A model generated the notes under the pieces. That model saw only the letters and a program-made list of their open reading frames with translations. It had not been told where the DNA came from and searched no databases. Below, piece after piece: positions 7,142 to 40,208 of a stretch of DNA of 40,208 nucleotides. Made by a program: the position numbers and the translations under genes. The stretch is from a virus. The first letter of the stretch is position 1, and each line of letters opens with the position of its first letter. The stretch lies in IMG/VR virus record IMGVR_UViG_3300046810_000022, positions 1 through 40,208 of that record; one strand, given 5' to 3'.

Positions 7142-7473
7142 TGCCTACCGTCCAGGGCGACGGCCTGGTTGAGGGCGACGGCAGAGAGCTGAAGCAGCGC
7201 GTACCGCTGCTCGTGCTCGTAGCTGCCCAGGGCCTCGAAGGCGAGCGACAGGAGCAGGGCGTCGAACGTGCCCTTCTCGCCGTACTCCTTGCCCCACGCG
7301 GCCGAGCGCCGGTCGTGCGCCTCGATGCGGTCCTTGGGGGCCGGCTTCACGTCGTACTCGCCGAGGTGCTTCGCGGCCTGCTTCATGTCGGTGATGGCCC
7401 GCGCCATCGGGTCCGGCTTCCGGCCACCCTTCTTCGGTGCCTGCTCGGTGTCGACCGTCTCGGTCTCTGCCAC
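7138..7473 (-). CDS. Unknown early protein
   Basis: 111 aa. A charged N-terminal tail (TEQAPKKGGRKPDPMARAI) is followed by two or three helices with YGEKGTFDALLLSLAFEAL. No catalytic motif or membrane segment. It lies between the primase toprim gene and small genes of the same operon, with 2 bases separating it from the toprim stop, so a role in replication is possible but not shown. Confidence 0.7.
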   Translation of the reverse strand: MAETETVDTEQAPKKGGRKPDPMARAITDMKQAAKHLGEYDVKPAPKDRIEAHDRRSAAWGKEYGEKGTFDALLLSLAFEALGSYEHEQRYALLQLSAVALNQAVALDGRQ

Positions 7474-7475
7474 TG

Positions 7476-8138
7476 TCAGTCCTCCTTCTTCTGGACCAGG
7501 GAGAGCAGGTGCTCGGCCCCGTGTGCCATGTAGGTGTCGGTCACGTCAGCCCGCAGCCGTACCGCCTTGGCGGAGCGGAGCTGGCGTGTGATCTTGCCGG
7601 TGAGCTCGGCTCCCGCGTCGTCCGGATCGGCCCACGTCCACACGCGGTTGAAGCCAGCGAGCATCCTTCGGTGCCTGCCGAACCACATGTTGGCGCCGGG
7701 GATGGCGACCGCGTGGAGTCCGAGCTTGTTCAGGATGATGGCGTCGAGCTCGCCCTCGGTGACGTGGATCTCTTCGCCTGCACGGTGGACGGCCCCGACA
7801 TGGAACATGCGGGGGATGTCGTCCTTGATGGTGTTGTACTTGCCGTGGAAGTAGTCGCGGTGGTTGTGCTCGCTCAGGCAGCGGAACCGCACGGTGAGCG
7901 GCTGGCCGTCTCGACCGAGGTAGGGGATCGCGAGCATCCCTCGGTACTTCTCGTGTCCGGGTGCCGGGTCAGCGACGATGCCGAGCCGGAAGGCCAGCGC
8001 CTCGTCCCGCCCGATCCCTCGGGCCATCAGGTAGGACGCCGTCTCGGCCGTGAGGTGCGCCTGGTAGGTGGCTACGGCCTCCTCCAGCATCTCCTTCTGG
8101 GACGTCGAGAGCGGTGTGAGCGGTTCGTGCTCGGCCAA
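7476..8138 (-). CDS. Primase toprim subunit (DnaG-like catalytic half)
   Basis: 220 aa. Residues 50-115 resemble the RNA polymerase basic subdomain of DnaG (YRGMLAIPYLGRDGQ), and residues 125-180 are a toprim fold with the glutamate motif EGELDA at 128-133 and the metal-binding DPDDAG at 171-176. It lacks the zinc-binding domain, which is encoded by the gene 15 bases upstream. Together the two would make primers for lagging-strand synthesis. The nearby RecA-fold ATPase is a candidate helicase partner. No helicase domain is fused, unlike T7 gp4. Confidence 0.85.
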   Translation of the reverse strand: MAEHEPLTPLSTSQKEMLEEAVATYQAHLTAETASYLMARGIGRDEALAFRLGIVADPAPGHEKYRGMLAIPYLGRDGQPLTVRFRCLSEHNHRDYFHGKYNTIKDDIPRMFHVGAVHRAGEEIHVTEGELDAIILNKLGLHAVAIPGANMWFGRHRRMLAGFNRVWTWADPDDAGAELTGKITRQLRSAKAVRLRADVTDTYMAHGAEHLLSLVQKKED

Positions 8139-8153: not shown

Positions 8154-8582
8154 CTACTTCCTCTTCCAGGCCGGCACGTAGCCGCCGCCTGGCTTCTGTC
8201 CGGGCTTCTTCGCTGCCCGGTGGCCGCCTCCGTAACGGCTGGTGTAGCTGTCCTGCTTGGCGACCGCGCCCTCTTCGAGGCCGTGCTCCTTGGCGTACGC
8301 CTTGGCCTGCTTGAAGTCGATCGCCTTGTTGAGCTGCATGTCGTGGTACTTCTCGATGAGGGTGAAGCTGTCTCCGCCGTTCGAGCAGGAGTGGCAGTTC
8401 CACAGGCCCTCGTCGAGCCGGTAGCTGAACGACGGTGTGTTGTCGTCGTGCAGTGGACACTTGGCCATGCCCGAGTTCCGCTGGTCGTTGAAGTCCACGT
8501 CGAAGTGGTGCATGACCGAGTCGAGCAGGGGCTTGCTGTCCGAACCGCCGCCCTGGTCGGCGTCGATGCGGTGGAACCTCAT
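8154..8582 (-). CDS. Primase zinc-binding (CHC2) subunit
   Basis: 142 aa. A CHC2-type zinc ribbon with Cys42, His45, Cys63 and Cys66 (KCPLHDDNTPSF then WNCHSCSNGGD) is the DNA-sequence-sensing part of DnaG-type primases. The tail is Gly/Lys rich and ends PAWKRK, probably flexible and DNA-binding. The toprim half is a separate gene just downstream. ATG 8582 lies in an ATGA overlap with the stop of the small gene upstream, and has GGAGGTGA in range. Confidence 0.85.
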   Translation of the reverse strand: MRFHRIDADQGGGSDSKPLLDSVMHHFDVDFNDQRNSGMAKCPLHDDNTPSFSYRLDEGLWNCHSCSNGGDSFTLIEKYHDMQLNKAIDFKQAKAYAKEHGLEEGAVAKQDSYTSRYGGGHRAAKKPGQKPGGGYVPAWKRK

Positions 8583-8731
8583 GGGTGCGTCACCTCCAGG
8601 GCCTCCTCGACGGCGAGGATCAGGGCCAGGTCGGAGTCGGGGTCTTCGATGTAGGCGAAGAACGCTTCCGTCTCGTCGTGCAGCGCATCGAGCTCGGCCT
8701 GCGTCATGTCCCAGCCCATGAACCCGATCAC
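8579..8731 (-). CDS. Very small acidic protein between nuclease and primase genes
   Basis: 50 aa (GTG start 8731, stop overlapping the primase ATG). Begins VIGFMGWDMTQAELDALHDE and continues as one acidic helix rich in Leu and Glu. It overlaps the neighbouring genes by 4 bases at both ends, and fills an otherwise empty gap in a tightly packed operon, which is the main evidence that it is real. An internal ATG at 8719 would give a 46 aa product. Function unknown. Confidence 0.7.
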   Translation of the reverse strand: MIGFMGWDMTQAELDALHDETEAFFAYIEDPDSDLALILAVEEALEVTHP

Positions 8732-9105
8732 TGCGGGTCCAGCCCGAGGTAGTCCTCGACGGTCGTGAGCACGAACGCCTTGCGCCAGTTCTTGCCGCGC
8801 CGCTTGACGACGACGATCGACTCGACGTCCTCCAGGTCCAGGCCGCGGTGCTTGGCGAAGTTCTCGCGCTCGACGATCGCCTCGCCGAGGAAGACGCCCG
8901 GCTCGAACTTGGCGTTCTTCGCCTCGATCACCAGGTACTTGCCGTCGCCCTCGCGGACGACCATGTCGCCCTCGTCCTCGGCGCCGGCCAGGCGAAGGGA
9001 CTCGACGTCGAACCCCTCGCTCCGCAGACCTTCACGCAGGTCGGTCTCCCACTGTGCGCCGACTCGCTTGTTGCGCTTGTTCCTCGCCGCGATGCTGTTG
9101 CTCAA
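8728..9105 (-). CDS. PD-(D/E)XK-type nuclease (Holliday junction resolvase-like)
   Basis: About 125 aa. The core motif is GDMVV (Asp47) followed by YLVIEAKNAKF (Glu61, Lys63), preceded by a basic N-terminus (ARNKRNKRVGAQWE) that fits the substrate-binding helix of phage resolvase-like nucleases. Probably cuts branched or replicating DNA. The start is uncertain: TTG 9105 gives a usable distance from GGGAGG, while GTG 9117 and 9114 lie on top of it. With TTG, an operator-like site sits exactly between the ribosome site and start codon. A leftward promoter lies just upstream (9158-9186). Confidence 0.78.
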   Translation of the reverse strand: MSNSIAARNKRNKRVGAQWETDLREGLRSEGFDVESLRLAGAEDEGDMVVREGDGKYLVIEAKNAKFEPGVFLGEAIVERENFAKHRGLDLEDVESIVVVKRRGKNWRKAFVLTTVEDYLGLDPQ

Positions 9106-9114
9106 CTTGCACAC
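9100..9114 (-). promoter_or_regulatory. Stoperator-like site over the nuclease start
   Basis: Reads GTGTGCAAGTTGAGC on the - strand, overlapping the translation start region of the small nuclease and about 45 bases downstream of the promoter -10 box. Confidence 0.6.
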
Positions 9115-9128
9115 CACCTCCCAGTAAT

Positions 9129-9146
9129 GCCGGGCGGATGCCCGGC
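9129..9146 (-). other. Hairpin in the 5' leader of the nuclease transcript
   Basis: GCCGGGC at 9129-9135 pairs with GCCCGGC at 9140-9146 around a 4-base loop. It lies at the expected 5' end of the transcript made from the promoter at 9158-9186, and may stabilise that RNA or affect ribosome access. Confidence 0.5.
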
Positions 9147-9157
9147 TGATGTTTGCG

Positions 9158-9186
9158 ACAGTATCACACTACGAACCAAGGCTCAA
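9158..9186 (-). promoter_or_regulatory. Early leftward promoter (TTGAGC-N17-TACTGT)
   Basis: On the - strand: TTGAGC (9186-9181), 17 bases, TACTGT (9163-9158), with the extended -10 context GTGTGATACTGTC. The same 12-base GTGTGATACTGT occurs at three + strand promoters near the right end (38009-38020, 38515-38526, 39657-39668), so this is a conserved phage promoter type. Confidence 0.7.
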
Positions 9187-10053
9187 CGCAACCTTGGTCG
9201 GCGACCACTCCTCGCCAGGCTTGGCCTGCGCCGCCTGGACGATGGCCCGCTTCTCCGCCTTCGCGAAGCGCGTGTACTCCGGCTGGCAGATCATCGTCGC
9301 GTAGCGGCCCGCGGTGGGGTCACACGGGCCCATGCGCTGCTTGATGCACGCCACGTTGTAGGCCAGCGAGGTCGGGTCCAGAGCCACGGAGAGCGAGAGC
9401 TCGGGCTTCTCGGACAGGCCGCCCTTGACCTGGTCGCGGGACGGGGGAGCCCAAGGGTTCGTCTTGGCTTCCCAGTTCTTGTCGCTCGCGTGGTGAAGGA
9501 TGATGACCGTTGCGCCCGTGTGGCGGGCGATCTCGGTGCAGCCCTGCATCACGGCCATCTGCTCGGTGTAGTCCGACTCGGCGCCCTCGAAGTCCATGAG
9601 GTTGTCGAAGACCAGGACTTCCGGGTACCGGTCCCACAGCTCGACGTACGCCTCCAGCTCCTCGTCGACCGAGCGCCAGGAGATGGGGGAGCCGAAGGAG
9701 AAGGTGATGTTCGAGTCGGCCAGCGCGTCGATGTACGCCTGCCTGTACTTGCCGCCCTCAGCCATGCCGGCCTCGACCATCTCGGTCGTGTCCCGCGTAG
9801 CCATGGAGGCGAGCCGGGACGAGGCGGTAAAGGCGCTCATGTCAGCGGAGAAGTACAGCGTCGGCAGGTTCATCTGTGCAACCCAGAAGAGGGCGAAGCC
9901 CGACTTCTGCGTACCGGATCGACCGGCCACCATGATGACCTCGCCGTGCCGGGGTCGAACGCCCATGGCGTACAGGTCGTCGAACGCCTCTACGCGCGGG
10001 AGTTCACGGCCGCTTGCAGCATGGAGCGCAAGGGACCTGCCTGGGGTGAGCAC
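9169..10053 (-). CDS. RecA/DnaB-fold ATPase, probable replicative helicase or recombinase
   Basis: 294 aa. A P-loop GRSGTQKS at 44-51 (unusual Gln before Lys), a second strand ending LYFSAD, and Walker B VLVFDNLMDF at about 146-155, followed by VIILHHASDK and a stretch with QVKGG, all in the order seen in DnaB/RepA-type RecA-fold proteins. It lacks the DnaB N-terminal domain, so it is closer in size to phage RepA-like helicases. GTG 10053 is chosen for AGAGGAG 8 bases upstream. Its start lies inside the end of the dCMP deaminase gene (64-base overlap). Confidence 0.8.
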   Translation of the reverse strand: MLTPGRSLALHAASGRELPRVEAFDDLYAMGVRPRHGEVIMVAGRSGTQKSGFALFWVAQMNLPTLYFSADMSAFTASSRLASMATRDTTEMVEAGMAEGGKYRQAYIDALADSNITFSFGSPISWRSVDEELEAYVELWDRYPEVLVFDNLMDFEGAESDYTEQMAVMQGCTEIARHTGATVIILHHASDKNWEAKTNPWAPPSRDQVKGGLSEKPELSLSVALDPTSLAYNVACIKQRMGPCDPTAGRYATMICQPEYTRFAKAEKRAIVQAAQAKPGEEWSPTKVALSLGS

Positions 10054-10445
10054 TGAGTGGACTCCTCTCGGTAGATGGTCTTCTTGATGCCGGACGCCTC
10101 GATCAGCGTCTGACAGGCCGGGCACGGCTTCCGGGTCACGTACAGCGTGGCGCCTGCCAGCTCGTACGGATCGGCGTGCTCGATGGCGTTGCGTTCGGCA
10201 TGCGTCGCGATGCAGTTCGCGTAGTCGCTGTCCGCCGCGATCTCGCCGTAGGACATCAGTCCTCGCGGGCAGTTGCCCGCACTCTCGCAGCCGGGGATAC
10301 CGGCGATGGCTCCGTTGTACCCAACGGCAAGGACACGATGCGTCCGGCTCAGGATCACGGCTCCGACCTTGGAGCGTGTGCAGTCGGCTCTCGTAGCCAC
10401 GACGTCAGCCATGGCCAGGGCCCACTCGTCCCAGCTTGGTCTCAC
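9990..10445 (-). CDS. Deoxycytidylate deaminase (dCMP deaminase)
   Basis: 151 aa. Zinc cytidine/deoxycytidylate deaminase fold with HAERNA (His82, catalytic Glu84) and PCPAC (Cys108, Cys111) as metal ligands. Converts dCMP to dUMP, feeding dTTP synthesis. No thymidylate synthase is visible in the window, so the host enzyme is presumably used. GTG 10445 follows GGAGGG by five bases. The last 21 codons overlap the start of the helicase-like gene. Confidence 0.9.
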   Translation of the reverse strand: MRPSWDEWALAMADVVATRADCTRSKVGAVILSRTHRVLAVGYNGAIAGIPGCESAGNCPRGLMSYGEIAADSDYANCIATHAERNAIEHADPYELAGATLYVTRKPCPACQTLIEASGIKKTIYREESTQCSPQAGPLRSMLQAAVNSRA

Positions 10446-10500
10446 TCGACCCTCCCTCCTGCGGGCTGGCGCCCGCGCATGTGCCTCCCTCCTTCTCGCA

Positions 10501-10515
10501 GCGACACTTACACAG
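10501..10515 (-). promoter_or_regulatory. Stoperator-like site
   Basis: Reads CTGTGTAAGTGTCGC on the - strand in the 75-base gap upstream of the deaminase gene; a C-to-T variant of the GTGCAAGTGTCGC form. Confidence 0.5.
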
Positions 10516-36909: not shown

Positions 36910-37330
36910 GGAACGTTGAGCCCTCGGTGACGTCCTACCTGAAGAGGTAGCTGCCATGAGCTGTCAACCCGAGGGAGTCTCCGCAAGGAGTAAGGAGTAA
37001 GTAGCTTCGGTAAGCGAGGCCCGACAGGGCCTCCAGCCTGCTACTTCGTCTCTTCGTACTTACCCTTACACTTACTGGTGGCAGTTGATCTTGGTATTTG
37101 GAAGCACTTCTTCCTGTGACCGTGGTCACACTTACACAGTGAGGCTTCGAGGCTGGGCCGCCTGGCGGCGGCCACCAGGAAGTGAGGCGACGGCGAGGTA
37201 GCAGCCAGGGGCGAAGCGGCAAGGGCGCCCTGCCGGGCGCCACAGAGTAGAGCCACCTACGCCCTGGGGGCGCTGTCGCGCCCCGGTAATCCAGTGCCGG
37301 CTGTCAGTCCTACGGCTTACTGTTGCAGCC
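36910..37330. other. Gene-free region between the divergent late operon and right-end genes
   Basis: No open frame here looks coding. Contents: hairpin CTACCT-GAAG-AGGTAG (36935-36950), a TTGACA on the - strand without a good -10, hairpin GAGGCCC-GACA-GGGCCTC (37018-37035), a perfect inverted repeat TGTGACC-GT-GGTCACA (37115-37130), and two GC-rich hairpins, GGCGCCC-TGCC-GGGCGCC (37224-37241) and GGGGCGC-TGTC-GCGCCCC (37267-37284). The late promoter and the packaging site would be expected hereabouts, but I cannot point to either. Confidence 0.6.
37115..37139. promoter_or_regulatory. Palindromic operator candidate joined to a stoperator-like variant
   Basis: The inverted repeat TGTGACC-GT-GGTCACA (37115-37130) overlaps CTGTGTAAGTGTGACC on the - strand (37139-37124), a variant of the dispersed motif. 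It lies upstream of the late operon and could control it. Confidence 0.5.
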
Positions 37331-37525
37331 ATGGACAACGACACTGACCTCCGCTTCGCCCTCCAGATCTCCGGCACCGAGCTGGCCGAGACGCCTCCGC
37401 CCGCGGACTCCCCGCTCGGGATGCTGCGTCTCTTCGCCGATGCCAACCCTGGTGTGGTTCTGTCCGCTGGCCACGTCCGCCAGGCCCTGGCCGGCACTCT
37501 CGGCCTGCGCTCTGATCGACCCTGA
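37331..37525 (+). CDS. Unknown small protein
   Basis: 64 aa, beginning MDNDTDLRFALQISGTELAE, acidic with a helical LGMLRLFADANPG segment. Codon use (strong G/C third bases) looks coding, but no good ribosome site precedes the ATG. First candidate gene on the rightward strand, just after the hairpin pair. Not recognised. Confidence 0.5.
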   Translation: MDNDTDLRFALQISGTELAETPPPADSPLGMLRLFADANPGVVLSAGHVRQALAGTLGLRSDRP

Positions 37526-37756
37526 AACCGTGGCGCGATCTTGGCCGGTAAGACGTGGCGGTCGCCGCTCCCACCCACCGGGGGTCACCCCCCACCCCAT
37601 CCGGGCCCGTGCTACCCTCGCGCGCCCCGCTGCGCTGCCCGCTCGCGGCTCATCTCCCAGGGCATGCGGGAACGGGCCAGCGCGCCCCGGAAAGCCCTTG
37701 AGAACGGCTCTCAGAGCCACGGGAAACGTGCTCTGACCTGCAAGGCTTGACACAAG

Positions 37757-37773
37757 CTGTGCAAGTGGTGCAG
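37757..37773 (+). promoter_or_regulatory. Operator-like site
   Basis: Reads CTGTGCAAGTGGTGCAG on the + strand. It is 4 bases downstream of a TTGACA (37747-37752) that lacks a clear -10. Confidence 0.5.
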
Positions 37774-37837
37774 TCTTTGGCTCGTCGCCACAACGGGACG
37801 CACCGCAAGCCGCAAGGCAAGCGGGACGGGCCAGACA

Positions 37838-37873
37838 GCGACACTTGCACAACCGAGCGAAAGCCTGTAAGGT
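37838..37873 (+). promoter_or_regulatory. Rightward promoter with operator over -35
   Basis: TTGCAC (37845-37850), exactly 17 bases, TAAGGT (37868-37873). The -35 is part of GCGACACTTGCACAA, the dispersed motif in inverted orientation. Confidence 0.65.
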
Positions 37874-37983
37874 CGAGCTCAGCAAGGCAGCACAGCGGGT
37901 GGGTGAACCGGGATGTCGATGGTCCGGGGAACGGTTACCGAGTGGCGAACAGCGGCTCACCTGCACAGCGCATGCCGAGCACA

Positions 37984-38020
37984 GCACAACTTGCACAACC
38001 CGAAGCGAGTGTGATACTGT
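37984..38020 (+). promoter_or_regulatory. Rightward promoter with operator over -35
   Basis: TTGCAC (37991-37996), 18 bases, TACTGT (38015-38020) in the context GTGTGATACTGTC. The -35 lies in GCACAACTTGCACAA, again the inverted motif. It would transcribe the structured region that follows. Confidence 0.68.
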
Positions 38021-38025
38021 CGCTT

Positions 38026-38500
38026 CAGCAACACAGCAAGACACGAACTTGGTACGACGCACCGCTCGCGGTGTAGACGGTGACTGAGAGCGTGGATGAG
38101 CAGAGCGTGAGGGTCGGGTATCCGACGCAGTCCGATCGCCGAGTGACTCCGCTCCTCCAGCGAACGTTGGGGTACAGTGCCCCGCCTGTCAGGCCATCTG
38201 AGGCGCAGGCCCGGAGTTGTGGGATGCCACACGATTCCGGGGTGTCGGATGGTAGGTAGGTGGGATCCAGGGCCCAACTGTCCTCCCCGGACAGTCCGGA
38301 AACGGAACGCGCCGAACGGCGCGGGACACAGTCCGGAAGGAAGCAAGCGGGGAGGGCAGGCAGTACCGGTCCCGCAAGGGACCGGGGGAGTGCCGGTACG
38401 GGCTCCCACAAAGCCCCCTCGGGACCGCTCGCCAGTACGGGAGCGGGGCCCGTGCAGCGAACGCCAAGGGGGCGCAAGGTCCCTCCCGAACGGGAGGTTG
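38026..38500 (+). ncRNA. Candidate large structured non-coding RNA
   Basis: Downstream of a good promoter and without a supportable gene. Hairpins in order: CCAGC-GAAC-GTTGG (38157-38170), ACTGTCC-TCCCC-GGACAGT (38277-38295), TCCG-GAAA-CGGA (38295-38306), CGCGCC-GAAC-GGCGCG (38308-38323), CGGTCCC-GCAA-GGGACCG (38367-38384), CCGCTC/GAGCGG (38425-38446) nested in CGGGC/GCCCG (38399-38452), and CCTCCC-GAAC-GGGAGG (38482-38497). Three stems carry the same GAAC loop, two carry GNRA loops. Large ornate RNAs are known from phages (for example GOLLD), but I cannot match this to any class. Ends are approximate. Confidence 0.5.
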
Positions 38501-38526
38501 ACCGACACCGCAAGGTGTGATACTGT
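38498..38526 (+). promoter_or_regulatory. Rightward promoter (TTGACC-N17-TACTGT)
   Basis: TTGACC (38498-38503), 17 bases, TACTGT (38521-38526) in the conserved GTGTGATACTGT context. The spacer itself contains the small hairpin ACACC-GCAA-GGTGT (38505-38518). Drives the gene starting at 38549 and the ribozyme-punctuated operon. Confidence 0.75.
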
Positions 38527-38548
38527 AACAACAGAACGAACGGAGCGC

Positions 38549-38926
38549 ATGATGCACTACTGCTCGGACGGCGAGATCGCCACCCACTCCTACGCCACCG
38601 CCGGTGGTCGCACCGCTTACCTCTGCGCCTACTGCGCCAAGAACTTCGGATACCCGCAGTACCTGGTCGAGCTCGGCCGTAAGAGCTGGCGCAAGGAGTA
38701 CGGCTACCTGATCAGCGCGTTCGACGGGTCCGGCCTGGGCGACCCGGTCTCGGACGTCTGGCCCTTCGAGGGTGACCACGCCGAAGAGTGGCTGACAGTC
38801 CTCGGGTGCGAGGACCAGTACCTGCTCGCCGATGCGGCATGGGAGCCCTACCGGGCCCACCAGTCCATCTCCACCCTGACGTACGAAGCGACCAGGGTCA
38901 CCGTTCTGCCACTTGTGCAAGTGTGA
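38549..38926 (+). CDS. Unknown small protein with Cys ligands
   Basis: 125 aa. Cys5, Cys26 and Cys29 in the first 30 residues (YCSDG, then YLCAYCAKNFGY) suggest a treble-clef or ribbon zinc site; the rest is mixed, with FEGDHAEEWLTVLGCEDQYL. The ATG at 38549 lies 4 bases after CGGAG. An operator-like motif overlaps the stop (38912-38926), and the first hammerhead ribozyme begins 29 bases later. First gene of the rightward small-gene operon. Not recognised. Confidence 0.75.
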   Translation: MMHYCSDGEIATHSYATAGGRTAYLCAYCAKNFGYPQYLVELGRKSWRKEYGYLISAFDGSGLGDPVSDVWPFEGDHAEEWLTVLGCEDQYLLADAAWEPYRAHQSISTLTYEATRVTVLPLVQV

Positions 38927-38929
38927 CAA
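38912..38929 (+). promoter_or_regulatory. Stoperator-like site overlapping a stop codon
   Basis: CTTGTGCAAGTGTGACAA on the + strand, co-directional with rightward transcription; the flanking CACTTG makes a near palindrome. Confidence 0.55.
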
Positions 38930-38955
38930 GTGTGAGAGTGTAGCGACATCAACAA

Positions 38956-39007
38956 GGCGAAACCCCGAAAGGGGTCCGGCCAGGTGGTTCCTGGTCGCTG
39001 ATGAGCC
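38956..39007 (+). ncRNA. Hammerhead ribozyme 1 (type II, stem II open)
   Basis: Order: stem II 3' arm GGC (38956-38958), core GAAA (38959-38962), stem III CCCC-GAAA-GGGG, U38975 and C38976 (the GUC cleavage triplet), stem I CGGCCAGG with CCTGGTCG around TGGTT, core CTGATGA (38998-39004), stem II 5' arm GCC. All invariant core bases are present. Cleavage is expected after C38976. Both stems I and III are closed by loops and II is open, so this is the type II permutation. Lies between the stop at 38926 and the start at 39034. Confidence 0.88.
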
Positions 39008-39033
39008 AGCCTGCTCGAATCGAGGGAGACATC

Positions 39034-39168
39034 ATGAGCATCCAGCTCCGCAAGGGTGAGTCCGTGAACCTGAACCAGCTCGCTCGCCAGACGCCCCAGG
39101 AGAGCGTCCTGAAGGGCCTGCTCCGCAACGACCTTCGTGCCCTGGCTGCCCGGTTCGGTGGCCGGTGA
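39034..39168 (+). CDS. Very small protein between two ribozymes
   Basis: 44 aa, beginning MSIQLRKGESVNLNQLARQT and ending LAARFGGR. The first 15 residues resemble the start of TerD-type proteins (LxKGxxVxL), but the rest does not continue that fold. GGGAG lies 6 bases before the ATG. The ATG inside the ribozyme core at 39001 is in frame and would add 11 residues. Bounded by hammerheads on both sides. Confidence 0.65.
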   Translation: MSIQLRKGESVNLNQLARQTPQESVLKGLLRNDLRALAARFGGR

Positions 39169-39183
39169 GAAGGACGAGCTGAA

Positions 39184-39235
39184 GGCGAAACCCCTTCGGG
39201 GGTCCGGCCGGCTGGTAGCCGACCGCTGATGAGCC
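39184..39235 (+). ncRNA. Hammerhead ribozyme 2 (type II)
   Basis: GGC (39184-39186), GAAA, stem III CCCC-TTCG-GGGG, GUC ending at C39204 (cleavage), stem I CGGCCGGCT with AGCCGACCG around GGT (one C.A mismatch), CTGATGA (39226-39232), GCC. Compared with copy 1, several stem I pairs change on both sides (A-U to G-C, G-C to C-G) and the stem III loop changes from GAAA to TTCG. It begins 15 bases after the preceding stop. Confidence 0.87.
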
Positions 39236-39261
39236 AGCCTGCTCAATTCCAAGGAGTCACT

Positions 39262-39639
39262 GTGACGACATACGTGCACCCTGCTTCATGGCACGAGTAC
39301 ACCGCCGCCCTTGACTGGGCGAGGACGGGCAACCAGCGCATCGCCGATGCGACCAGTGAGCCCAAGGAGATGCCTCGCGGTGCGAGGTACTACCTGACCA
39401 ACGACTTCCAGTCCGGGTTCGGAGTGGCCAGCGACGGCACGCTGATCGGTCTGTTCTCGACGGTCAAGGGTCGCGGTGAAGACCTGGTCTGGGACGCGGT
39501 GACGCACAAGGGTGCGAGCAAGCTGGACTGCTTCGACGGGTTCCTGCCCGCCTACTACAAGCAGTTCGGGTTCGTCGAGACGGAGCGGGTCGCGAACTGG
39601 ACGGCGGGTGAGCCGGACGTGGTCTTCATGGCGCTGTGA
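39262..39639 (+). CDS. GNAT-like acetyltransferase
   Basis: 125 aa. The segment YYLTNDFQSGFGVASDGTLI, then LFSTVKGRGEDLVWDAVTHK and a final YKQFGFVETERVANWTAGEP resemble the strands and the C-terminal Y..GF.E motif of GNAT enzymes of phage origin. The acetyl-CoA loop is not canonical, so activity is uncertain. GTG 39262 has AAGGAG 5 bases upstream; ATG 39229 in the ribozyme core is also in frame (11 residues longer). Follows ribozyme 2. Confidence 0.7.
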   Translation: MTTYVHPASWHEYTAALDWARTGNQRIADATSEPKEMPRGARYYLTNDFQSGFGVASDGTLIGLFSTVKGRGEDLVWDAVTHKGASKLDCFDGFLPAYYKQFGFVETERVANWTAGEPDVVFMAL

Positions 39640-39668
39640 GTGTGCAACCTGCGCCAGTGTGATACTGT
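39640..39668 (+). promoter_or_regulatory. Rightward promoter with operator-like motif
   Basis: GTGTGATACTGT (39657-39668) with TACTGT as -10, preceded at 39640-39655 by GTGTGCAACCTGCGCC, a copy of the dispersed motif. The -35 is poor (GTGTGC at 17 bases), so it may need an activator or the phage sigma. No ribozyme separates the flanking genes here. Confidence 0.5.
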
Positions 39669-39692
39669 CACAACATCGAAAGGGGAGAGCGA

Positions 39693-39887
39693 GTGAGCAA
39701 GATCCAGGAACTGCTTCGGGCGGCAGCCGGGGGAGCGGTCATCGAGTGCAAGGTGCGGCCCGCGGAAGGGACGCGGGTGGTGTTCAGCCCCCGTGAGGAT
39801 CTGGGGCGAGACCCGCTGCCCTGGCTCCTGGAAGGCGAGCAGCACGACTGGGCCCGCTACCGGAGTCGGGAGGTGGGGGCGCGGTGA
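39693..39887 (+). CDS. Unknown small protein
   Basis: 64 aa, beginning MSKIQELLRAAAGGAVIECK. A helix, then short strands and a charged C-terminus (HDWARYRSREVGAR). GTG 39693 is preceded by GGGGAG at 9 bases. It has its own promoter at 39640-39668 and is followed one base after the stop by ribozyme 3. Not recognised. Confidence 0.65.
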   Translation: MSKIQELLRAAAGGAVIECKVRPAEGTRVVFSPREDLGRDPLPWLLEGEQHDWARYRSREVGAR

Positions 39888-39888
39888 A

Positions 39889-39942
39889 GGCGAAACACCC
39901 GTGAGGGTGTCTGGCCGGGTGGTTCCCGGTCACTGATGAGCC
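39889..39942 (+). ncRNA. Hammerhead ribozyme 3 (type II)
   Basis: GGC (39889-39891), GAAA, stem III CACCC-GTGA-GGGTG, GUC ending at C39911 (cleavage), stem I TGGCCGGG with CCCGGTCA around TGGTT, CTGATGA (39933-39939), GCC. The end pair of stem I changes from C-G to U-A and stem III gains a pair, both compensated. Confidence 0.9.
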
Positions 39943-39961
39943 AACCCAAGAGGAGCACGAC

Positions 39962-40093
39962 ATGGACGGATACAGCATCACCCCGGAGTACAGCGTCGAG
40001 GAGCTGGCCGAGTTGCTGGCCGAGCTGGAGTACGTCGAGCGGAGAAGGGTCCTGGAGCTGGCCGACAAGGTCGCGGCATCCCACTACGAGTAG
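39962..40093 (+). CDS. Very small acidic protein between two ribozymes
   Basis: 43 aa, beginning MDGYSITPEYSVEELAELLA and continuing as one amphipathic helix to ADKVAASHYE. AGGAG lies 7 bases before the ATG. It is flanked by ribozymes 3 and 4. Function unknown. Confidence 0.65.
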   Translation: MDGYSITPEYSVEELAELLAELEYVERRRVLELADKVAASHYE

Positions 40094-40096
40094 CAA

Positions 40097-40148
40097 GGCG
40101 AAACGCCCTCGGGCGTCTGGCCGGGTGGTACCCGGTCACTGATGAGCC
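40097..40148 (+). ncRNA. Hammerhead ribozyme 4 (type II)
   Basis: GGC (40097-40099), GAAA, stem III CGCC-CTCG-GGCG, GUC ending at C40117 (cleavage), stem I TGGCCGGG with CCCGGTCA around TGGTA, CTGATGA (40139-40145), GCC. It begins 3 bases after the preceding stop. Stem III differs from the other copies in sequence but keeps pairing. Confidence 0.9.
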
Positions 40149-40193
40149 AACCAAGCACGGCATCCACCAGTTACCGAGGCTGAAAGGCCCCAC

Positions 40194-40208
40194 ATGCAGA
40201 TCACCATG
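40194..40208 (+). CDS. Possible start of the next small gene (cut by window edge)
   Basis: ATG CAG ATC ACC ATG at the end of the window, after ribozyme 4 and a weak GAAAGG, by analogy with the earlier units. Only 5 codons are visible. Confidence 0.35.

What the first reader, a model, noticed from the sequence alone, without database searches (positions are those of the whole stretch)
38956..40148. Four type II hammerhead ribozymes punctuate a phage operon of tiny genes
Seen: four elements at 38956, 39184, 39889 and 40097 with every invariant hammerhead core base (CTGATGA, GAAA, GUC), closed stems I and III, and an open stem II. Stem I and III pairs and loops vary between copies with compensation. 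Each lies within 1-29 bases after a stop codon and before the next start. Known: type II is the stem-II-open permutation, recognised late and mostly in bacteria and metagenomes. Inferred: self-cleavage divides the polycistronic RNA so each message ends in the stem III hairpin and the next begins with the stem I hairpin, setting stability or unequal gene expression. The one junction lacking a ribozyme (39640-39692) has a promoter instead.
Basis: partly seen in the sequence, partly recalled or inferred. Interest (0 to 1): 0.93.

Follow-up and report, generated by a model that had tools for sequence, protein, structure and literature searches.

The report
Self-cutting RNAs between phage genes
A Streptomyces phage carries a small self-cutting RNA between most of the tiny genes of one operon, and close relatives carry an unrelated tRNA-shaped element in the same gaps, which suggests that cutting the message into single-gene pieces is the point.

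Summary
Confirmed. The window holds four type II hammerhead ribozymes at exactly the stated places, all on the + strand between genes. In map order Rfam RF02276 scores them 37.9, 36.3, 49.0 and 46.3 bits (cut-off 37). The window matches Streptomyces phages of the subfamily Arquatrovirinae. Of 13 such phages fetched, nine carry 8-12 hammerheads each (89 in all; 74 lie clear of annotated genes). Stems I and III covary. That clustered hammerheads may cut phage polycistrons was published in 2011 (PMC3088659), so that part is not new.

What appears new lies in the other four phages (Nerdos, Sujidade, Speedwell, Amela). No hammerhead was found there. Their junctions hold a uniform 40-nt tRNA-elbow mimic: 5-bp acceptor stem, D-loop-like GG linker, 6-bp T stem, TTCGAGN loop. 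Two tertiary-type pairs not used to select it form in 45 of 45 sequences, and a hairpin usually follows within 5 nt. By gene family the two devices precede the same genes (5 of 6 mimic families against 0 of 11; p 0.001). In two arms tested no Rfam family reached its cut-off, and paper searches showed no description.

Best reading: both cut the operon mRNA at gene junctions and leave a 5' hairpin on the next message. Cleavage is untested.

The parts
38956..39007 (+). type II hammerhead ribozyme 1; predicted cleavage 38976/38977
   Evidence: Rfam RF02276 37.9 bits; core scan
39184..39235 (+). type II hammerhead ribozyme 2; predicted cleavage 39204/39205
   Evidence: Rfam RF02276 36.3 bits, just under the cut-off of 37; core scan
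39889..39942 (+). type II hammerhead ribozyme 3; predicted cleavage 39911/39912
   Evidence: Rfam RF02276 49.0 bits; core scan
40097..40148 (+). type II hammerhead ribozyme 4; predicted cleavage 40117/40118
   Evidence: Rfam RF02276 46.3 bits; core scan
38549..38926 (+). small gene upstream of ribozyme 1 (start assumed at the in-frame ATG 38549; the longest ORF starts at 38177)
   Evidence: ORF list, sequence
39034..39168 (+). 44-codon gene between ribozymes 1 and 2 (start assumed at 39034)
   Evidence: ORF list, sequence
39262..39639 (+). 125-aa gene; probably the acetyltransferase of relatives, by position; PHROG 2563 (unknown function)
39657..39674 (+). GTGTGATACTGTCACAAC motif, promoter- or operator-like, in the junction without a ribozyme
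   Evidence: exact match to the motif GTGTGATACTGTNACAAC; TGATACTGT at the same junction in 6 of 9 hammerhead relatives, those without a ribozyme there; no sigma-70 match
38515..38532 (+). second exact match to the same motif, upstream of the first gene of the array
38930..38948 (+). degenerate copy of the same motif immediately before ribozyme 1
   Evidence: repeat family D3, 79%
39693..39887 (+). 64-aa gene between the motif and ribozyme 3
39962..40093 (+). 43-aa gene between ribozymes 3 and 4

Best explanation
The four elements are type II hammerhead ribozymes that cut a polycistronic phage mRNA at gene junctions. The upstream message would then end in the stem III hairpin, and the downstream message would begin with a 5'-OH stem I hairpin; in relatives the next annotated start lies a median 26 nt after the ribozyme. 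The purpose is most likely junction cutting itself, turning one operon transcript into single-gene messages with a defined, hairpin-capped 5' end. The reason is that related phages put an unrelated element, a 40-nt tRNA-elbow mimic suited to host RNase P and/or RNase Z and usually followed by a hairpin, in the same junctions. Shown: sequence, structure by covariation, position, and the two devices before the same gene families. Inferred: cleavage in the cell, RNase P/Z use, and the effect on stability or translation.
For: Rfam and core scans. Covariation on 110-111 elements selected by core bases and spacing only: stem I pair 1 is 93% paired against 42% after shuffling, with GC, CG and UA types; stem III pairs 2-5 are 85-88% against 46-62%. 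The loop I x 3'-tail pseudoknot scores 4.14 against 3.65 shuffled, maximum 3.85 in 200 shuffles. 89 ribozymes in nine annotated phages lie a median 16 nt after a stop codon and a tightly fixed 26 nt (IQR 23-29) before the next annotated start. They are inherited at their junction: similarity 0.767 at the same junction across phages against 0.682 at different junctions, p 2e-19 on non-independent pairs. The alternative device precedes the same gene families: 5 of 6 against 0 of 11, p 0.001; at the junction before the OCR/methylase-annotated gene, where Sujidade has the mimic, 8 of 8 comparable hammerhead phages have a hammerhead. In 66 array mimics the following 28 nt fold at -11.0 against -5.9 kcal/mol for their own shuffles. 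Clustered hammerheads from three bacteria cleaved ~2-kb polycistronic RNAs in vitro, and one set was active in E. coli (PMC3088659).
Against: No cleavage data exist for any of these copies. One copy is below Rfam's cut-off. Single-sequence folding misses stem I in two of the four. Stem II pairs 1 and 3 and stem III pair 1 hardly vary, so they add little. Junction occupancy is incomplete (16 of 86 longer gaps lack one), and five loci held carry both devices. 28 of 66 mimics also have some structure just upstream.
Confidence: 0.75

Rival explanations
1. The elements mark borders of exchangeable gene cassettes: short repeats that help small genes recombine in and out of the operon, with RNA cleavage of little importance.
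For: The genes are small and repeat-flanked; the other three window copies are 69-83% alike to the reference copy over 58 nt, without gaps.
Against: Repeats used for recombination should be conserved in DNA sequence, but stems I and III change on both sides while pairing is kept. Copies at the same junction in different phages are more alike (mean 0.767) than copies at different junctions of one phage (0.695), so they are not freely moved. An unrelated RNA fold precedes the same gene families in sister phages.
Confidence: 0.1
2. The ribozymes are regulated switches (ligand, protein or magnesium controlled) rather than constitutive scissors.
For: Regulation by self-cleavage is suggested for other hammerheads in passages of PMC3088659; glmS is the known case named there.
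Against: The same fold recurs before several different gene families.
Confidence: 0.08
3. The important products are the excised RNAs (linear or circular), not the mRNA ends.
For: Several phages have two hammerhead matches 1-2 nt apart in one junction, which would release an RNA of about 62-68 nt; circles were considered in PMC3088659.
Against: That paper looked for spliced or circular products and detected none. In the window each junction has a single copy. The alternative device is a different RNA.
Confidence: 0.05
4. The tRNA-elbow elements of the sister phages are tRNA decoys or protein-binding sites unrelated to mRNA cutting, so the shared junctions only reflect where spacer DNA happens to be long.
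For: Only sequence and covariation are known; neither an anticodon nor a canonical CCA end is present.
Against: In four phages they start 8-18 nt (IQR) after stop codons. They keep the D-loop/T-loop elbow that RNase P and RNase Z contact (PMC4810234, passages). In 66 array copies the first paired base downstream is 0-5 nt away in 62, and 50 fold clearly better than their shuffles.
Confidence: 0.2

Closest known systems
Hammerhead_II (Rfam RF02276)
   Same: core, open stem II, closed stems I and III, loop I x 3'-tail pseudoknot tendency as a group; matches above or within 1 bit of the cut-off
   Different: nothing essential; stem II is short (3 bp), and PMC3088659 calls short stem II common
Clustered prophage hammerheads (Perreault et al. 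2011, PMC3088659; one section read whole, other passages seen; figures and supplement not seen)
   Same: hammerheads flank single genes or short blocks in prophages; processing to single-gene mRNAs proposed; tandem sets cleave in vitro and one in E. coli
   Different: the largest set named in what I read is a triple; here 8-12 per genome in nine phages, often before the same gene families across genera, with a second unrelated device in sister phages; 'Streptomyces' does not occur in that main text
tRNA punctuation of mitochondrial transcripts by RNase P and RNase Z (mostly recalled; only abstract starts seen in the listing)
   Same: tRNA-shaped elements between genes would release individual mRNAs
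   Different: here a 40-nt element with no anticodon arm, repeated, in phage operons
mascRNA-menRNA (Rfam RF01684)
   Same: small tRNA-like RNA; four weak hits in the Nerdos and Speedwell arms, 21-27 bits
   Different: below the gathering score of 42.5; bacterial phage context
RiboJ-type hammerhead insulators of synthetic biology (recalled)
   Same: a hammerhead upstream of each gene gives a standard 5' leader
   Different: natural, type II, and inside one operon

Membership tests
Hammerhead ribozyme, type II | conserved core CUGANGA / GAAA / UH at the cleavage site | tested here: met
   all four window copies CTGATGA, GAAA, GUC
Hammerhead ribozyme, type II | stems I and III closed by loops, stem II open | tested here: met
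   covariation on 110-111 elements
Hammerhead ribozyme, type II | score over Rfam gathering cut-off (37 bits), copies 1, 3 and 4 (a curator's threshold, not a feature of the molecule) | tested here: met
   37.9, 49.0 and 46.3 bits
Hammerhead ribozyme, type II | score over Rfam gathering cut-off, copy 2 (39184-39235; a curator's threshold, not a feature of the molecule) | tested here: not met
   36.3 bits, 0.7 under the threshold; core and stems are complete
Hammerhead ribozyme, type II | loop I x 3'-tail pseudoknot in the window copies | tested here: inconclusive
   clear for the group (4.14 against a maximum of 3.85 in 200 shuffles), but single window copies score 3.5, 4.0, 4.0 and 4.0 with a shuffled mean of 3.65-3.84
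Hammerhead ribozyme, type II | self-cleavage at the predicted site | not testable with these tools
   needs transcription in vitro
tRNA (for the sister-phage element) | acceptor stem, T arm with TTCGA loop, GG in D-loop position | tested here: met
   covariation in 38 core-selected and 45 structure-selected copies; acceptor 5 bp and T stem 6 bp instead of the usual 7 and 5 (recalled)
tRNA (for the sister-phage element) | anticodon arm and decoding | tested here: not met
   11-nt linker only; ARAGORN reports 3 tRNAs in the four arms, overlapping 2 of the 33 scanned mimics and one TTCAAG variant
mascRNA-menRNA | score over Rfam gathering cut-off | tested here: not met
   best 26.9 against 42.5 bits
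RNase P / RNase Z substrate | cleavage at the acceptor stem ends | not testable with these tools
   inferred from the elbow features only

The most novel reading that the evidence does not exclude
Related Streptomyces phages punctuate the same operon junctions with two unrelated, interchangeable RNA-cutting devices: self-cleaving type II hammerheads, or a previously undescribed 40-nt tRNA-elbow mimic cut by host RNase P and/or RNase Z. Both leave the next gene's message with a 5' hairpin. The mimic also occurs in a gene gap of mycobacteriophage Rope and, mostly just after stop codons, in Gemmatimonadota, Hymenobacter, Kribbella and Actinocatenispora DNA, so junction punctuation by mini-tRNAs may be a general habit of mobile elements.
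Probability: 0.55. Interest if true: 0.92.

Novelty: new variant of a known kind. Interest (0 to 1): 0.8.

Why it matters
PMC3088659 (2011) left the function of bacterial and phage hammerheads unproven, and a 2023 paper (PMC10085705, passages) still calls the reason for ribozyme gene associations unknown. Finding an unrelated processing-type element in the same junctions of close relatives is natural-experiment evidence that the selected property is cutting the message between genes. It makes the question testable in laboratory phages (R4 against Sujidade) on laboratory Streptomyces. It also points to a structured RNA that Rfam 15 did not match at its cut-offs in the two arms searched, and it accounts for some small ORFs annotated over hammerheads.

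Tried and rejected
Other Rfam families in the window: only Hammerhead_II reached its cut-off. Sigma-70 promoter scan of 37000-40208: 0 promoter sites (0.4 expected) and 1 terminator-like site on the other strand (1.6 expected). Hammerheads in more distant relatives with about 41-44% terminase identity (BabyRay, Swann, Rosalind, Amyev, D29): 0 of 5. Start codon idea: the core CTGATGA contains an ATG, but only 3 of 89 elements have an annotated start there and in the window it is in frame with the next gene only for copies 1 and 2 among the three whose next gene lies inside the window, so I do not read it as a start site. Device switches: the best tree needs two changes, but one clade is not rejected (p-AU 0.066), so repeated switching is only suggested. 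Single-sequence folding is a weak test: z -1.8 to -2.9 for the four hammerheads and -1.0 to -1.9 for four mimics, with stem I missing in copies 2 and 3. Strict mutual exclusivity was rejected: five loci held carry both devices. The first gap scan missed three hammerheads that Rfam had found; they were added. One more in a VieEnRose gap (48132-48240), visible, stays uncounted. The gene-family test used the set.

Rows dropped before counts: near-identical elements (cut-offs); in the gene-family Fisher test, families with mixed or minority mimic use (4 of 21 by downstream gene, 6 of 21 by upstream gene). Many loci came from a pattern that fixes some stem bases on one side, and the pairing tests inherit that.

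Paper searches cover open-licence PubMed Central only; their listings showed no phage junction mini-tRNAs and no report of hammerheads in Streptomyces phages. Passages only were seen of PMC10085705, PMC7761336, PMC11536984 and PMC4810234; a term search of PMC8407740 found nothing.
Full report
OBSERVATION. The window is a 40,208-base virus record whose right end carries a + strand operon of small genes, cut off by the record's end. Rfam finds type II hammerheads at 38955-39015, 39888-39950 and 40096-40156 above the cut-off and at 39183-39243 just below it (36.3 bits). Copies start 29, 15, 1 and 3 nt after stop codons.

WHOSE GENOME. DNA and protein matches place it with Streptomyces phages of the subfamily Arquatrovirinae. 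Spernnie (Sentinelvirus) is closest among those listed: 86% identity over 71% of the right end, and 96.4% in the terminase. The order of ribozymes in Spernnie largely matches the window: ribozyme before the acetyltransferase, none right after it, then one after each of the next two genes. Two differences: Spernnie has a tandem pair at the first junction, and its second gene is longer.

ARRAYS IN RELATIVES. I fetched the early-gene arms of 13 such phages; nine have hammerheads. Rfam, run on whole records, finds arrays in Spernnie, Salutena, Caelum, Amethyst and Pablito and in BartholomewSD and VieEnRose, all credible hits on one strand. My scan of the arms adds Urza and R4. Merged counts, in the order Spernnie, Salutena, Caelum, Amethyst, Pablito, BartholomewSD, VieEnRose, Urza, R4, are 10, 12, 10, 8, 9, 11, 10, 10 and 9, in all 89. 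One Spernnie copy was found by my scan only. Of 86 gaps of at least 50 nt in these nine arms, 70 hold one; of 166 shorter gaps, 1 does (partly circular). Of the 89, 74 are intergenic and 15 overlap annotated ORFs, 6 of them in R4. In viral contigs found by a hammerhead pattern (58 stretches), I gave 29 of 58 loci to Rfam: 28 of 29 records match, 23 of them with 7-12 copies and 5 with 1-2. Some of these records are the same phages as above (by length, for example Amethyst). In 199 Streptomyces genomes 7 have a hammerhead II under strict filters, a lower bound.

STRUCTURE. Selecting by core bases and spacing alone gives 317-319 distinct elements; mononucleotide-shuffled DNA of the same loci gives 17 chance hits. 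In 111 representatives, stem I and stem III pairs change on both sides while staying paired: stem I pair 1 is 103 of 111 against 46.7 shuffled; stem III pair 3 is 96 of 111 against 51.1. Stem III pair 1 barely varies (97 against 91.5). Stem II pair 2 covaries (90 of 110 against 57.3), while pairs 1 and 3 do not exceed shuffles. Loop I and the 3' tail pair better than shuffled partners (4.14 against 3.65, maximum 3.85), fitting the pseudoknot described in PMC3088659. Against this, thermodynamic folding of single copies shows stem III in all four but stem I only in copies 1 and 4.

WHERE THEY SIT. The distance from ribozyme to the next annotated start is tight (median 26, IQR 23-29), while stop-to-ribozyme is loose (16, IQR 5-29). 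The element therefore seems placed with respect to the downstream gene. Copies at the same junction in different phages are more alike than copies at different junctions (0.767 against 0.682), so they descend with the junction.

THE SECOND DEVICE. Nerdos and Speedwell have no hammerhead by Rfam yet have comparable gaps. Reading those gaps revealed one uniform element: 5-bp acceptor stem, 11-nt linker (most often A-N-N-GGCA-N-N-C-A), 6-bp T stem, TTCGAGN loop, then acceptor 3' strand and usually ACT or ACG. Nerdos has 10, Speedwell 8, Sujidade 7 and Amela 8, and the nine hammerhead phages have 0; the same scan finds no hammerhead in these four. Of 45 gaps of at least 50 nt in the four arms, 32 hold one; of 46 shorter gaps, none. 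A covariance model (R1; two of its 45 training sequences come from these arms) finds no match in the window. Over 19 stretches from 14 phages it gives 35 matches: 34 in these four phages (33 at 55-70 bits and one Amela copy with a TTCAAG loop at 43.5) and one in mycobacteriophage Rope, with none in the nine hammerhead phages.

ITS STRUCTURE. The least biased test selects by GG.A..C and TTCGAG alone: 224 distinct copies (3 in shuffled DNA), 38 representatives. Acceptor and T-stem pairs are 84-95% paired, mostly well above shuffles. Linker 2 with linker 8 is 34 of 38 against 16.2; linker 9 with the last T-loop base is 33 of 38 against 21.7. On 45 copies chosen for intact stems those two pairs, which were not part of the choice, form in 45 of 45 with four pair types each; the stems' own 99-100% is circular there. 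The second pair joins the D-loop-like linker to the T loop, as in the elbow that RNase P and RNase Z recognise (PMC4810234, passages). In the Nerdos and Speedwell arms no Rfam family reached its cut-off; mascRNA gave 26.9 bits against 42.5. ARAGORN reports 3 tRNAs in the four arms, each using a mimic as its 3' part.

SAME JUNCTIONS. Among 21 gene families shared by both kinds of phage, 6 mostly have the mimic upstream in mimic phages; 5 of those 6 mostly have a hammerhead upstream in hammerhead phages. Of 11 that never have the mimic, 0 have a hammerhead (Fisher p 0.001; 4 mixed families left out). By upstream gene it is 4 of 6 against 0 of 9 (p 0.011; 6 left out). Where both flanking genes are mutual best hits, 9 comparisons start from a mimic: at the junction before the OCR/methylase-annotated gene Sujidade has the mimic and 8 of 8 comparable phages a hammerhead; the ninth (Nerdos-Spernnie, another junction) has the mimic against no gap. 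The phages are related, so these are not fully independent trials.

EXCLUSIVE, BUT NOT STRICTLY. Among the 13 fetched phages no arm has both. 0 of 29 hammerhead records match the mimic pattern. 0 of 26 multi-mimic records exceed the hammerhead cut-off, and one has 31.7 bits. That one (L198) looks like a real mixture: a full-core hammerhead directly after a stop codon and five mimics further down the same strand. Four more loci, which share a nearly identical mimic, also hold both, 3-4 kb apart on one strand (L133, L161, L179, L231). A tree of ten operon proteins needs two switches (95/95 support at the key branch), but a single clade is not rejected (p-AU 0.066).

CONVERGENT PRODUCT. In 66 representatives from loci with at least four mimics, the 28 nt beginning 2 nt after the acceptor stem fold at -11.0 kcal/mol against -5.9 shuffled (50 of 66 better by more than 2 kcal/mol); the next 28 nt do not (-3.05 against -3.69). 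The 28 nt upstream show a smaller excess (-5.9 against -4.3). In all 134 representatives the downstream values are -9.3 against -5.3 (83 of 134). The first paired base is 0-5 nt after the acceptor stem in 62 of 66. A cut at the 3' side of the mimic would thus usually leave a message starting with a hairpin, just as hammerhead cleavage leaves stem I at the 5' end. This is the strongest hint that what is selected is a hairpin-started single-gene mRNA. It is inference.

BREADTH OF THE MIMIC. Pattern matches occur in at least 120 viral stretches (the scan stopped at its limit; single hits were mostly not examined and some may be ordinary tRNAs) and in 14 genome stretches including Hymenobacter, Gemmatimonadota, Kribbella, Amycolatopsis and Actinocatenispora. 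In the four genome loci I looked at, 7 of 9 mimics start 6-9 nt after the stop codon of a plausible ORF (3 of 3 in L241, 2 of 2 in L244, 1 of 1 in L234, 1 of 3 in L247). In Rope it sits in a 96-nt gap. In 199 Streptomyces genomes 2 match R1, one of them the genome chosen as centre because it has the mimic.

THE GAP WITHOUT A RIBOZYME. 39640-39692 holds GTGTGATACTGTCACAAC. In the nine hammerhead phages the gap after the acetyltransferase gene (in Pablito the gene at the matching place) has TGATACTGT and no ribozyme in 6 (Spernnie, Salutena, Amethyst, Pablito, BartholomewSD, R4), and ribozyme without the exact motif in 3 (Caelum, VieEnRose, Urza); Caelum has TGATAGTGT beside two ribozymes. In the four mimic phages this junction holds a mimic, in Nerdos right behind a similar TGATACCTT motif. 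The motif may be a promoter or a repressor site; the sigma-70 scan does not recognise it.

NOVELTY. Type II hammerheads, their clustering in prophages and the processing hypothesis are published (PMC3088659; one section read whole, other passages seen). PMC10085705 (passages) notes that hammerheads and twisters share gene neighbourhoods for unknown reasons. New here, as far as my searches go: the 8-12 copy arrays in Arquatrovirinae, and a covarying mini-tRNA before the same gene families in sister phages. The library lacks most subscription papers, so priority is not certain.

VERDICT. Its mechanism is the best available and gains comparative support, but it is not new by itself. The two-device finding lifts the interest. 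Cleavage remains to be shown for both devices.

Noticed in passing
Spernnie MT701594 45572-45632 and 45634-45700; BartholomewSD MK460245 50514-50578 and 50581-50647; also G035, G037, G041, G044, G050: Two hammerhead matches lie 1-2 nt apart in several phages and would release an RNA of about 62-68 nt.
   Followed up: no
R4 JX182370 (L249): Six of nine hammerheads lie inside annotated small ORFs, and two annotated genes begin at the ATG of a ribozyme core.
   Followed up: partly
L102 9315-9407 (-); L250 8163-8245 (-) and 11674-11764 (-): ARAGORN builds a tRNA-Arg (two) or tRNA-Trp (one) that uses a mimic as its 3' part; the tRNA-Arg annotated within the matched stretch of Endor2 may be the same error.
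   Followed up: partly
L198 (viral contig), 7439-7491 and 8469-10502: One strand carries a full-core hammerhead (31.7 bits, under the Rfam cut-off) after a stop codon and then five tRNA-elbow mimics.
   Followed up: partly
window 9152-9169 (-), 38009-38026, 38515-38532, 39657-39674: Repeated GTGTGATACTGT motif, possibly the phage's promoter or repressor site.
   Followed up: partly
L234, L241, L244, L247: tRNA-elbow mimics in Hymenobacter, Gemmatimonadota, Kribbella and Actinocatenispora DNA, 7 of 9 just after stop codons; whether these are prophages was not checked.
   Followed up: no
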